Assembly (NCBI GenBank): GCA_947472995.1
Contig: CANJBO010000001.1
Span: forward strand, 1-64,000
Reading direction: 5' to 3'
Length of the DNA: 64,000 nucleotides
Source: Chloroflexota bacterium
GTDB lineage: Bacteria > Chloroflexota > Dehalococcoidia > UBA2979
Shown here: positions 25,162 to 30,726 of the stretch, piece after piece
How positions within the stretch are numbered: the stretch's first letter is position 1
Layout of the letters: the number at the start of each line of letters is the position of its first letter
Notes under the pieces: generated by a model
What the model was told of the DNA's origin: nothing
The model's database searches: none
The model's input: the letters and a program-made list of their open reading frames with translations, nothing else
Translations under genes and position numbers: made by a program

Positions 25162-26466
25162 CTAGATCGCCTCGACGGCGGCGCTGTTCACGGCGGTGCC
25201 GGGCGGGCGGCGCAGCACGCGCACGCGCTTCACGCGCCGGCCGAGGATCGTGAGCACGCGCAGCTCCAGGTGCGGCACCTCGTCGGCGTCGCCGTCGGGC
25301 TCCATCGCGCGCGCGACGACCTCGTCGCCCGGGACGGCGAGACGGCCGAGCGAGGTGACGATGAGGCCGCCGACGGTGTCGAAGTCGTCCGCGACCAGCT
25401 CCGACTCGAACAGCTCGTTCAACTCGTCGATGGTGAGGCTGCCGTCCACGATCGCCTCGACCGGGGAGAGCTGCTCGACCTCGGCAGCCGGCGTGTCGTA
25501 CTCGTCGTTGATCTCGCCGACGATCTCCTCGAGCAGGTCCTCGACGGTGATCACGCCGGCCGTCCCGCCGTACTCGTCCACGACGATCGCGAGGTGGACG
25601 CGCGCGCGGCGCAGATCCGTCAGCAGCTCGTCGGCGCGGCGCGTCTCCGGCACGAGGTACGGCGGACGCGCGAGGTCCGCGAGGCGCGGCAGGGCGTCGC
25701 CGCCGGAGACGTAGCCCAGCAGGTCCTTCGCGTAGACGACGCCGACCACGCGGTCCAGCGACTCCTCGTACAGCGGGATGCGGCTGAAGCCGGAGGTCGC
25801 GGCGAGGCGCATCGCGTCGGCGAAGCTGGCCTCCGAGGACAGCGCCGTGACGTCCGTGCGCGGGGTCATCAGCTCGCGCGCGGTGTGCTCCGACAGCTGG
25901 AGGACGGCGCGCATCATGCGGCGCTCCTCCACCATCTTGTCGTCGTCCTGGTCGGTCGCCTCGAGCAGCCCGATCAGCTCCTCGGCGGGGTCGATCTGGT
26001 CGATCGGCCCGCGATAGCCGAGCGCGCGCAACGTCACCGTCACGGGCAGCCCGAAGAGGATCGCGATCGGCGTGAAGACCGCCTGCAGGACGCGCACCGG
26101 CGGGTCGAGGGCCGCCGCGAGCATCTCCGTGCGCGCGGCCCGTCGTGCCGCCGCGCGCAGCATGCCGATCGTCGCGAGCAGGATCACCGCCCCCGCGACG
26201 TCCTCGACCGTGACGTTGCCGGTGACGATGCCGGCCGTGGCGACCATCGCGAGGATCGTCGCCGCGGTGAGGCCCGTGCGCAGCGCGCGCGTGAGCTGCT
26301 GGCGCTCCGAGGTGTAGTCGCGCAGCAGCCCGGACAGTGTGCCGTCGCGGACGACGCGACGGCGGACGAGGTCAATCGATGCGGCCTCGGCGGCGGTCAG
26401 CACGACCAGCAGCACGAGACCGGCGACGAGGAGGACGGTGCAGATGAGGATCGTATCCAAAAGCAC
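25162..26466 (-). CDS. CNNM/CorC-type transporter-associated protein with CBS pair
   Basis: HlyC/CorC family membrane protein, linked to Mg/Co ion handling. Residues 1-30 and about 65-105 and 130-155 are hydrophobic (the CNNM-like domain). They are followed by the hallmark REMTPR-like [16 protein letters not shown], two CBS motifs ([40 protein letters not shown]) and a C-terminal CorC_HlyC domain ([19 protein letters not shown] and [20 protein letters not shown]). 434 aa, GTG start at 26466, 18 nt after glmU. Confidence 0.9.
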
Positions 26467-26484: not shown

Positions 26485-27909
26485 CTACGCCGGATCGCCT
26501 CCTTCGGCCATCGATCTGGTGGTGCCGATCACGCGCGCCGGGACGCCGACCACGGTCGCGCCGGCCGGCACGTCGTCCACGACCACGGCGCCCGCGCCGG
26601 TGCGCGCCCCGGCGCCGAGGCTCACCGGCGCGACCATCACCGTGTCGCTGCCGAGGTGCACGCCGTCGCCGATCACCGTGCGGTGCTTGTTCACGCCGTC
26701 GTAGTTCGCGGTGATCGATCCGGCGCCCACGTTCACGTCGGCGCCGACCTCGGCATCGCCGATGTACGAGAAGTGACCGACGGCGGTGCGCTCGCCCACG
26801 CGCGACGCCTTCACCTCGGCGTAGTTGCCGAGGTGGACGTCCCGCTCCAGCGTGGAGCCGGGGCGCACGTGGCAATACGGCCCGACGGTCACGCCCTCGC
26901 GCAGCACGGAACCCTCGAGGGTGGAGCCGCCGATAGTGCAGCCAGCGCCGATCGTCATGTCGTGCAGGATCGCGTTCGGGCCGATGCGGCAGCCCCCGGC
27001 GATGGTGGTCGCGCCGGTGATGTGCGTGCCCGGCAGCAGCACCGTGTCCGCCTCGATGGTCACGCCGGCGTCGACGTAGATCGTCGGCGGGTCCATCAGC
27101 GTCACGCCGTCGCGCATCAGGCGCTCGCGGATGCGATCGCGCAGGGTCCGGTCGGCGTGCGCCAGCTGCATGCGATCGCCGATCTGCGCGACCTCGATCG
27201 CCTCGGCGACCTGGAACGCCTCGACGCCGCCGCGCGCGACCGCGTGCGCCACGAGGTCGCCGAGCGAGTCGGTGCTGGCGTTCGGCTCGAGCAGCGCGAG
27301 CGTGTCCCAGAGCCACGCGGCGTCGGCGGCGTACAGGCCGGCGTTGACCTCGGGCTGGCCGCGCATCGCGCCCGTCAGGTCGCGCTCGCGGACGATGCCC
27401 TGCACCTCGCCGTTGCGGCGGAGGATGCGACCGAAGCCGTGCGGGTCGGTGAGGTACGCCGTGAGGAAGGTGAGCGTGCGGCCGGCGTCGAGGTGGCGCC
27501 CCGCCAGCTCGCGGAGCGTGCGCGTGCTGATCAGCGGCATGTCGGCGCGCAGGATCATCACGGGACCGTCGCCGCTCGCCGCGGCGCGAGAGCGGAGCGC
27601 GGCGTTCGCGGAGCCCTCGGCGTCGCGCGCGTCGATGACCTCGACGCCCTCACCGGCGGCGGCGACGAGCGTGGCGGGGTCCGTGCCCGAGACGACGAGG
27701 ATGCGCGGGCAGCCGGCCTCGCGCAGGAGGTCGCAGACGAGACGCACCATCGGCACGCCGGCGACCGGGTGCAGCACGGCGGGCGTCGAGGACTGCATCG
27801 CGACGGCATCGCCGGGCGCGAGCACCAGCGCCGTCCACCCCGCAAGGGAGGTGACGGCGGTCGTCTTGGGCGCGGAGGTGATGGTGGCCCTCGGCGTGCG
27901 GCTGGTCAT
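26485..27909 (-). CDS. glmU: GlmU-type bifunctional protein with degenerate uridylyltransferase domain
   Basis: Canonical GlmU acetylates GlcN-1-P and then uridylylates it to UDP-GlcNAc. 474 aa. The C-terminal left-handed beta-helix keeps the acetyltransferase features: NYAEVKASRVGERTAVGHF, with the catalytic-type His at about 379, and IGDAEVGADVNVGAGSITAN. The N-terminal half has lost key residues. The nucleotide-binding AAGxGTRM is APGDAVAM (31-38), so Arg is Ala; the PK lysine is Ala44; the metal-ligand NNR is GDR (244-246); and the TQQEYYLTD-like region is missing. Asp123 (RADMPLI) and NAGLYA remain. Probably acetyltransferase only; UTP transfer must come from elsewhere. Confidence 0.88.
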   Translation of the reverse strand: MTSRTPRATITSAPKTTAVTSLAGWTALVLAPGDAVAMQSSTPAVLHPVAGVPMVRLVCDLLREAGCPRILVVSGTDPATLVAAAGEGVEVIDARDAEGSANAALRSRAAASGDGPVMILRADMPLISTRTLRELAGRHLDAGRTLTFLTAYLTDPHGFGRILRRNGEVQGIVRERDLTGAMRGQPEVNAGLYAADAAWLWDTLALLEPNASTDSLGDLVAHAVARGGVEAFQVAEAIEVAQIGDRMQLAHADRTLRDRIRERLMRDGVTLMDPPTIYVDAGVTIEADTVLLPGTHITGATTIAGGCRIGPNAILHDMTIGAGCTIGGSTLEGSVLREGVTVGPYCHVRPGSTLERDVHLGNYAEVKASRVGERTAVGHFSYIGDAEVGADVNVGAGSITANYDGVNKHRTVIGDGVHLGSDTVMVAPVSLGAGARTGAGAVVVDDVPAGATVVGVPARVIGTTRSMAEGGDPA

Positions 27910-28047: not shown

Positions 28048-30726
28048 GTGACCATCGACGAGCTGCGGCGAGCCTTCCAGGCGTACTTCGAGGCTCGCGG
28101 GCACCGCCGCATCCCCTCGTCCTCCCTCGTGCCCCACGGCGATCCGACGCTCCTCTTCACGACCGCCGGGATGGTGCAGTTCAAGCCCTACTTCATGGGC
28201 CTGGAGGAGCCGCCGGCCCGCCGCCTCACCTCGATCCAGCGCTGCTTCCGCACCACCGACGTCGAGGAGGTGGGCGACGAGAACCACCTGACGCTGTTCG
28301 AGATGCTCGGCAACTTCTCCGTGGGCGACTACTTCAAGCCGGAGGTCATCCCCTGGGCGTGGGAGTTCCTCACGGACGTCCTCGGCATCCCGAAGGACAG
28401 GCTCTGGGCCACGGTGTTCACCGACGACGACGAGGCGGCCGCGATCTGGAGCAGCCTCGGCGTCCCGCCGGAGCGCCTGCTGCGCTACACCGCCGCGCAG
28501 GGCAACTGGTGGGGCCCGCCGGGCGACACCGGGCCGATGGGCCCCTGCTCCGAGATGCACTACGACTGGGGCCTGACGCCGGGCTGCGCCGACTGCGAGC
28601 GCGGCACGTGCCACCCGGACATCGGGTGCGGACGGTTCCTGGAGATCTGGAACCTCGTCTTCATGTCGTACTACCGCGAGGAGGACGGCTCGCAGACCGA
28701 CCTCCCCGCGGCGAACATCGACACCGGCGCGGGCCTCGAGCGGCTCGCGTCCGTGGTGCAGGGCGTGCGCGCCGTGTACGAGACGGACGAGCTGCGCGGC
28801 GTCCTCGCCGCCGCTGAGCGCGTGACCGGCCGCGTCTACGACCCCGACGAGCAGCCCGAGACCGCTCGTGCGCTCCGCGCGATCACGGAGCACTCGCGCG
28901 CCCTCGCATTCCTCGTCACCGACGGCGTGCTGCCGAGCAACGAGGGACGCGGCTACGTGCTGCGCCGTCTGCTGCGACGCGCCGTCTACTTCGGCCACCG
29001 CCTCGGCGTGCGCGAGCCGTTCCTCGAGCGCGTCGTGGACGCCGCGATCGACCACTCGATGGCGGCGCACCCGCAGCTCGGCGAGCAGCGTGACTTCATC
29101 TGCCGCATCGCACGCCTCGAGGAGGCGCGCTTCCAGGCGACCCTCGACCGCGGGCTCGCGCTGCTCGAGGAGGTCGTGACGCGCGAGGCCTCGACGAAGC
29201 GCATCCCCGGCCGTGACATGTTCACGCTGTACGACACGCACGGCCTGCCCCCGGAGCTGACGCTGGAGGTCGCGCAGGGCCTCGGGTACGAGGTGGACCG
29301 CGCCGGCTTCGACGCGGAGATGGACGCGCAGCGCGAGCGGTCGAAGGGCGACGAGGCGTTCGGCGGCGAGCAGGACACGCGCGCGCAGCGCTACGCCGCG
29401 ATCGTCGCGCCGAGCGAGTTCGTCGGCTACGACACGATCGAGGCGCAGACGACCGTCGCGCACCTCGTCGGCGCGGCGGGCGGGCCTGTCGACGCGCTGT
29501 CCGAGGGCGAGGCGGGCGAGATCGTGCTCACCTCGACGCCGTTCTACCCCGAAGGCGGCGGCCAGGTCGGCGATCAGGGCACGATCGAGGCGGCGACGGG
29601 CCGCTTCGCCGTCGAGGACACGCACCGCTACGGCGAGTCGGTCGTGCACATCGGCCGCGTGGTTGCCGGGAGCATCGCGCTCGGCGCGCCGGTGACCGGG
29701 CGCGTCGACGAGGCGCGACGGCAGGACACGGCGCGCAACCACACCGGCACGCACCTGTTGCACGCGGCGCTGCGCAGCGTCCTCGGCACCCACGTGCGAC
29801 AGGCCGGCTCGTACGTCGGGCCGGACCGCCTGCGCTTCGATTACACCCACCCCGAGGCGCCGTCCGAGGATCAGCTCACCGAGATCCAGCGCATCGTGAA
29901 CACGAAGGTGCGCGCGGACATCGAGAGCGCGACGTTCGAGCTGGAGTACGACGAGGCGATCGAGCGCGGCGCGATCGCGTTCTTCGAGGACCGCTACACC
30001 GCGCGCGTGCGGATGGTCGAGTACTGCGACTCGCGCGGGCACGCGCCGGGCGGCCACACGATGGACTGCTACAGCCGCGAGCTGTGCGGCGGCATCCACC
30101 TGCGCTCGACGGGACAGGTCGGCATGCTCCTGATCGTCTCGGACCAGAGCATCGGCGCCGGCCTGCGCCGCATCGAGGCGCTGACCGGCGTCGAGGCGGA
30201 GCGGCACGTCGAGGACCGCACCGGCATGGTGAACGCGCTCGCGCGGCGCTTCCGCACGCCGCCCGCGCAGGTCGTGGAGCGCATCGCCGCGCTGGAGGAA
30301 CAGCTCGCCGTCGAGCGACGCCGCCTCGAGGACGCCGAGCGGCGTGCCTCGGCGGGCACGGCGGACAGCATCGCCGACGCCGCCGAGGACATTGGCGGGG
30401 TGAAGGTGCTCGTGGCGCGCGTGCAGGCCGAGTCTGCCGACGCCCTCCGCCCGATGGTCGACCGGCTGCGCGACCGCCTCGGCTCCGCGTTCATCGCGCT
30501 CGCGGCGGACATCGACGGGCGGCCCTCGTTCATCGTCGCGGCGACGGACGACGTGGTCGCGCGCGGCCTGAGCGCCGCCGACGTGGTGAAGATCGCCGCG
30601 GGCATCGCCGGGGGCGGCGGCGGCGGACGCCCGCAGATCGCGCAGGCCGGCGGTCGCGACGCGTCGAAGATCGACGAGGCGCTCGCCGCGGCCCTCGAGG
30701 CGGCGCGGAGCCGCCTCTCATCCTGA
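28048..30726 (+). CDS. alaS: alanine--tRNA ligase
   Basis: Charges tRNA-Ala. 892 aa from GTG 28048. The N-terminal class II catalytic domain is intact (SLVPHGDPTLLFTTAGMVQF, FEMLGNFSVGDYFK, NIDTGAGLERLASVVQG). A cysteine-rich insert CADCERGTCHPDIGCGRF precedes LEIWNLVFM. The editing domain has NHTGTHLLH and the second metal motif as ELCGGIHLRSTG, with Ile where CGGTH is usual. A C-terminal C-Ala domain ends in GGGGGGRPQIAQAGG. It heads alaS-ruvX-mltG-aroE. Confidence 0.97.
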   Translation: MTIDELRRAFQAYFEARGHRRIPSSSLVPHGDPTLLFTTAGMVQFKPYFMGLEEPPARRLTSIQRCFRTTDVEEVGDENHLTLFEMLGNFSVGDYFKPEVIPWAWEFLTDVLGIPKDRLWATVFTDDDEAAAIWSSLGVPPERLLRYTAAQGNWWGPPGDTGPMGPCSEMHYDWGLTPGCADCERGTCHPDIGCGRFLEIWNLVFMSYYREEDGSQTDLPAANIDTGAGLERLASVVQGVRAVYETDELRGVLAAAERVTGRVYDPDEQPETARALRAITEHSRALAFLVTDGVLPSNEGRGYVLRRLLRRAVYFGHRLGVREPFLERVVDAAIDHSMAAHPQLGEQRDFICRIARLEEARFQATLDRGLALLEEVVTREASTKRIPGRDMFTLYDTHGLPPELTLEVAQGLGYEVDRAGFDAEMDAQRERSKGDEAFGGEQDTRAQRYAAIVAPSEFVGYDTIEAQTTVAHLVGAAGGPVDALSEGEAGEIVLTSTPFYPEGGGQVGDQGTIEAATGRFAVEDTHRYGESVVHIGRVVAGSIALGAPVTGRVDEARRQDTARNHTGTHLLHAALRSVLGTHVRQAGSYVGPDRLRFDYTHPEAPSEDQLTEIQRIVNTKVRADIESATFELEYDEAIERGAIAFFEDRYTARVRMVEYCDSRGHAPGGHTMDCYSRELCGGIHLRSTGQVGMLLIVSDQSIGAGLRRIEALTGVEAERHVEDRTGMVNALARRFRTPPAQVVERIAALEEQLAVERRRLEDAERRASAGTADSIADAAEDIGGVKVLVARVQAESADALRPMVDRLRDRLGSAFIALAADIDGRPSFIVAATDDVVARGLSAADVVKIAAGIAGGGGGGRPQIAQAGGRDASKIDEALAAALEAARSRLSS

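What the first reader, a model, noticed from the sequence alone, without database searches (positions are those of the whole stretch)
26485..27909. GlmU with a dismantled uridylyltransferase active site
The acetyltransferase half is intact but the N-terminal half reads APGDAVAM instead of AAGxGTRM, Ala44 instead of the PK lysine, GDR instead of the metal-binding NNR, and lacks the QEYYLTD-like region. UDP-GlcNAc synthesis is essential, so a separate UTP:GlcNAc-1-P uridylyltransferase should exist, or this protein has a new partner or role.
Basis: partly seen in the sequence, partly recalled or inferred. Interest (0 to 1): 0.6.

Follow-up and report, generated by a model that had tools for sequence, protein, structure and literature searches.

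The report
Acetyltransferase-only GlmU with dead half
In a group of uncultured freshwater and groundwater bacteria, one half of an essential two-part cell-wall enzyme (GlmU) has lost its catalytic residues while the other half stays intact, so another enzyme, possibly one so far known only as a helper, must make the cell-wall precursor UDP-GlcNAc.

Summary
Window 26485-27909 (minus strand) encodes a GlmU orthologue whose acetyltransferase site is complete. Its uridylyltransferase half has lost the G-loop, R18, K25, Q76, T82, E154, Y197, T199 and N227; D105 and the fold remain. This is not an assembly error: six of six genomes of the genus have lost K25, Q76, E154 and N227. On a tree built without GlmU, all 16 eroded genomes in it form one clade of four genera within a 44-genome Dehalococcoidia family; most other genera are intact. 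In a multi-phylum control every GlmU outside this clade keeps R18 and K25. In the core of the genus the dead domain is still under purifying selection. The family has MurA, so UDP-GlcNAc is needed. Two main candidates are present: GlmR/YvcK (in 43 of 44 genomes, catalytic D-D-N conserved, activity shown biochemically in Firmicutes) and a 306-aa RmlA/ArchGlmU-like nucleotidyltransferase found in nearly all eroded genomes. A third, a mannose-1-P-GTase-like enzyme beside the only GlmM-like mutase detected, is less likely. Which one does the job, and why the dead domain is kept, cannot be settled by sequence.

The parts
26485..27909 (-). GlmU orthologue, 474 aa, ATG start; acetyltransferase intact, uridylyltransferase site dismantled
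27160..27834 (-). N-terminal (former uridylyltransferase) domain, residues 26-250
   Evidence: PF12804 match 27-144; model
27796..27831 (-). former nucleotide-binding G-loop, ALVLAPGDAVAM
27778..27780 (-). Ala44 in place of Lys25
27601..27630 (-). residues 94-103, former uracil-binding QxxxxGTGHA (Q76, T82 lost, G81 kept)
27541..27543 (-). Asp123 = Asp105, the metal-binding residue that is kept
27388..27390 (-). Arg174 in place of Glu154 (GlcNAc binding)
27253..27282 (-). region of the lost GEYYLTD motif (Y197, T199), residues 210-219
27178..27180 (-). Gly244 in place of metal-binding Asn227
26530..27159 (-). C-terminal left-handed beta-helix acetyltransferase domain, all tested active-site residues kept
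28048..30726 (+). alaS, divergent neighbour conserved across the family (orthology marker)
25162..26466 (-). CBS-domain membrane protein gene (CorC/HlyC-like by my reading), conserved downstream neighbour

Best explanation
This GlmU is now an acetyltransferase-only enzyme: it turns GlcN-1-P into GlcNAc-1-P with its C-terminal half, and its N-terminal half is a folded but catalytically dead remnant. The last step (GlcNAc-1-P + UTP to UDP-GlcNAc) has passed to a stand-alone uridylyltransferase. The two main candidates are GlmR/YvcK (G000:C1:269057-269971, same contig, outside the window) and the 306-aa nucleotidyltransferase at G000:C2:103964-104881. I rate GlmR slightly ahead because its activity is proven elsewhere. 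The erosion probably began once, in the common ancestor of four genera, with loss of sugar-binding residues (E154, Y197, T199); genera g1 and g9 then lost the nucleotide and metal site too. Shown: residue losses, intact acetyltransferase site, single clade, MurA, presence of both candidates with their key residues. Inferred: loss of activity, takeover, and who took over.
For: Residue table and phylum-wide control; one clade with 100/100 support, and again on a tree without GlmU; synteny proves orthology; MurA over cut-off in all sampled family members; no second full GlmU in eroded-clade genomes of 90% completeness or more; GlmR in 43 of 44 genomes with D, D and N invariant in the 32 sequences read, its homologues shown to make UDP-GlcNAc (PMC10128056) and needed catalytically in B. 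subtilis (PMC13046274); the 306-aa enzyme complete and in nearly all eroded genomes.
Against: No activity was measured. D105, G140, G81 and N169 remain, so residual or altered activity is not excluded. The window genome is only 73% complete, so an unseen enzyme is possible. GlmR is also present where GlmU is intact, so its presence is permissive, not diagnostic. GlmS was not searched for.
Confidence: 0.82

Rival explanations
1. The 306-aa RmlA/ArchGlmU-like nucleotidyltransferase, rather than GlmR, is the UDP-GlcNAc pyrophosphorylase; GlmR keeps an accessory role.
For: All active-site residues invariant, with Gln and a GSGDA motif where GlmU has Gln and GTGHA; no RmlB over cut-off in the family, so it is unlikely to be RmlA; clade-specific changes near its G-loop and near its GE[VI]E loop, which I take to lie by the sugar; found in every eroded genome of 80% completeness or more.
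Against: Not found in two 75-76% complete g9 genomes, where neighbouring clpS is also not found, so this is inconclusive; also present in many genomes with intact GlmU; below the cut-offs of RmlA and archaeal GlmU.
Confidence: 0.35
2. The 344-aa mannose-1-P-guanylyltransferase-like enzyme beside the only GlmM-like mutase detected (G000:C16:9207-11626) makes UDP-GlcNAc.
Against: Best matches are GDP-mannose enzymes, with Glu where UTP enzymes have Gln; equally present with intact GlmU; no clade-specific change at the active-site motifs.
Confidence: 0.12
3. The N-domain is still a nucleotidyltransferase with changed substrates or an altered mechanism.
For: In g12 and g15 the nucleotide side is kept while the sugar side is changed; purifying selection in core g1.
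Against: In g1 the phosphate-binding Lys, the uracil Gln and the metal Asn are all gone; K25, Q76 and D105 are reported as absolutely required in H. influenzae GlmU (quoted in PMC10128056).
Confidence: 0.08
4. The lineage does not need UDP-GlcNAc, so the half was simply lost.
For: Most other sampled families of the class have no MurA over cut-off.
Against: MurA is over cut-off in every sampled genome of this family, eroded clade included, and the acetyltransferase half that makes GlcNAc-1-P is kept intact.
Confidence: 0.04

Closest known systems
Bifunctional GlmU (TIGR01173)
   Same: Length, domain order, acetyltransferase active site, family score over cut-off, predicted fold
   Different: Uridylyltransferase active site dismantled
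GlmR/YvcK accessory uridyltransferase (PMC10128056, PMC13046274)
   Same: A GlmR with the D, D, N residues is present and could make UDP-GlcNAc from GlcNAc-1-P and UTP
   Different: In the published cases GlmU is intact and GlmR supplements it; here GlmU's own uridylyltransferase site is gone, a situation the Listeria paper only considers as a hypothetical
Archaeal dual nucleotidyltransferases (ST0452, PDB 5Z09/2GGO) and RmlA
   Same: Fold and active-site motifs of the 306-aa candidate
   Different: Not the gene in the window; the 306-aa enzyme is below their family cut-offs and lacks the acetyltransferase part of ST0452-type enzymes

Membership tests
Bifunctional GlmU | Curated whole-protein score (TIGR01173) | tested here: met
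   391.4 against 366.85 bits
Bifunctional GlmU | Acetyltransferase active-site residues | tested here: met
   8 of 8 kept
Bifunctional GlmU | Uridylyltransferase active-site residues (G-loop, R18, K25, Q76, T82, D105, E154, N227) | tested here: not met
   only D105 of these is kept in the window protein; it is a GlmU orthologue but not filed as bifunctional
Bifunctional GlmU | Both enzyme activities | not testable with these tools
   needs an assay
GlmR/YvcK (candidate partner) | Curated score (TIGR01826) and catalytic D, D, N | tested here: met
   348 against 196 bits in the window genome; D, D, N in 32 of 32 sequences; mapping of N rests on spacing of 159-160 against 158
GlmR/YvcK (candidate partner) | Uridyltransferase activity | not testable with these tools
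   shown for Firmicutes homologues only
RmlA or archaeal GlmU (306-aa enzyme) | Curated cut-off of either family | tested here: not met
   173.7 of 320 and 142.7 of 292 bits

The most novel reading that the evidence does not exclude
A natural lineage in which GlmR is the sole UDP-GlcNAc synthase, with GlmU reduced to an acetyltransferase whose dead uridylyltransferase domain is kept as a ligand-sensing or docking module.
Probability: 0.25. Interest if true: 0.75.

Novelty: new variant of a known kind. Interest (0 to 1): 0.58.

Why it matters
GlmU is treated as an essential bifunctional antibiotic target. Here is a wall-making clade that appears to have dropped half of it. That gives a natural test of whether GlmR (or another nucleotidyltransferase) can carry UDP-GlcNAc synthesis alone, and a graded series (g12/g15 partly eroded, g1/g9 fully) for studying how an essential active site is lost.

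Tried and rejected
Assembly or frameshift error: rejected, the same losses recur in independent genomes. Repeated independent losses: not favoured for the start of the erosion, one clade on trees with and without GlmU; the GlmU C-domain tree alone was too poorly resolved. Eukaryotic-type UDPGP: no hit, but the control genomes were silent too, so uninformative. The 306-aa enzyme as RmlA: unlikely, no RmlB over cut-off. Absence of the 306-aa gene in intact relatives as proof of reciprocity: weakened, because neighbouring clpS was also not found in most of them; only G007 has clpS without it, and the plain association is not significant (Fisher p = 0.06) and rests on one origin. Dead domain as decaying junk: not supported in core g1 (dN/dS about 0.1-0.3, N/C distance ratio 0.9-1.6, within the range of intact genera), but G004 (ratio 3.3-4) and g9 do look relaxed; dS values are high and rough. 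Literature: no paper on degenerate GlmU uridylyltransferase domains found in the held library.

Full report
Observation. The gene at 26485-27909 lies on the minus strand. It scores above the GlmU cut-off and keeps the GlmU fold in a model (N-domain mostly above pLDDT 80, with the former G-loop region at 63-71; domain orientation uncertain, pTM 0.56). It aligns with intact relatives at about 50-60% identity with few gaps, so the missing residues are not hidden elsewhere. Of the ligand and metal residues examined, D105, G140, G81, N169 and the G-loop G14 remain. The acetyltransferase site is complete. Residue numbers and roles follow E. coli GlmU from my own knowledge; that K25, Q76 and D105 are required is quoted in PMC10128056 for H. 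influenzae GlmU.

Distribution. The window genome belongs to a family of 44 genomes in 17 genera; named relatives are Dehalococcoidia/Chloroflexi assemblies. GlmU is syntenic with alaS and a CBS-domain gene in nearly all family members read. Genus g1 (6 of 6 genomes) is dismantled: K25, Q76, E154 and N227 are lost in all, R18 in three of six. Genera g12 (5) and g15 (3) have lost sugar-side residues (E154, Y197, T199, often G140) and keep R18, K25, Q76, D105 and usually N227. Genus g9 has lost nearly everything except D105 (two sequences read). Most other genera keep the site apart from single substitutions; g10 is a mixed case (G014 carries both an intact and a dismantled copy, possibly by binning error) and g5 is moderately altered. 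On a tree of alaS + CBS gene + GlmU C-domain all eroded copies form one clade, 100/100, and again without GlmU (16 genomes, SH-aLRT 100). The simplest history is one loss of sugar binding, then separate losses of the nucleotide site in g1 and g9. In GlmUs of other phyla the same positions are almost invariant.

Need for the product. MurA is above cut-off in every sampled family member. The only GlmM-like mutase detected at the threshold used is closest to the archaeal type and sits beside the 344-aa nucleotidyltransferase. GlmS was not searched for.

Who does the last step. G001 (93% complete) has two PF00483 proteins, the 306-aa and the 344-aa types, and one GlmU. The 306-aa enzyme is widespread in the family, mostly head-to-head with clpS, with an invariant, complete active site. 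GlmR is in 43 of 44 genomes, including both g9 genomes in which the 306-aa gene was not found, with D, D and N invariant. Purified GlmR of Listeria, S. aureus and B. subtilis makes UDP-GlcNAc from GlcNAc-1-P and UTP (PMC10128056), and in B. subtilis the catalytic residues are needed in vivo (PMC13046274). I put GlmR at about 0.4, the 306-aa enzyme at 0.35, the 344-aa enzyme at 0.12, and the rest to the unknown. More than one may act.

Why the dead half stays. In core g1 it evolves under purifying selection and no faster relative to the C-domain than in intact genera, which argues for a structural or regulatory role; G004 and g9 look relaxed. The role is inference only.

Verdict.

Noticed in passing
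L057 (G048:C11:7153-7758); L055, L056, L058 (G055, G037, G038): Elsewhere in the same class GlmU occurs as halves: an acetyltransferase-only ORF of 232 aa in G048, and ORFs of 346-388 aa without the acetyltransferase end in G037, G038 and G055.
   Followed up: partly
L015 (G014:C44) and L040 (G014:C10): Genome G014 carries both a dismantled and an intact GlmU; the dismantled one lies on a short contig and groups with genus g1, so a binning error is likely but a real double set is not excluded.
   Followed up: partly
L114:11112-12882 (G000:C2) and the matching part of L116 (G001:C2): The 306-aa nucleotidyltransferase gene lies next to a gene that reads as an L,D-transpeptidase (YkuD-like), seen in four of the genus g1 genomes.
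   Followed up: partly
G009 and G023 (L053, L054): Genus g5 has an aberrant G-loop (SGGKSSRFKS) and a divergent GlmU but keeps K25, Q76, E154 and N227; the 306-aa enzyme was not found there.
   Followed up: no
family-wide: MurA is over cut-off in all 21 sampled members of this family but in only 3 of 14 sampled other families of the class.
   Followed up: no
G000:C16:9207-11626 and relatives: No GlmM reaches the bacterial family cut-off in the family; the mutase found is closest to the archaeal GlmM model (288 of 439 bits) and adjoins a sugar nucleotidyltransferase.
   Followed up: partly
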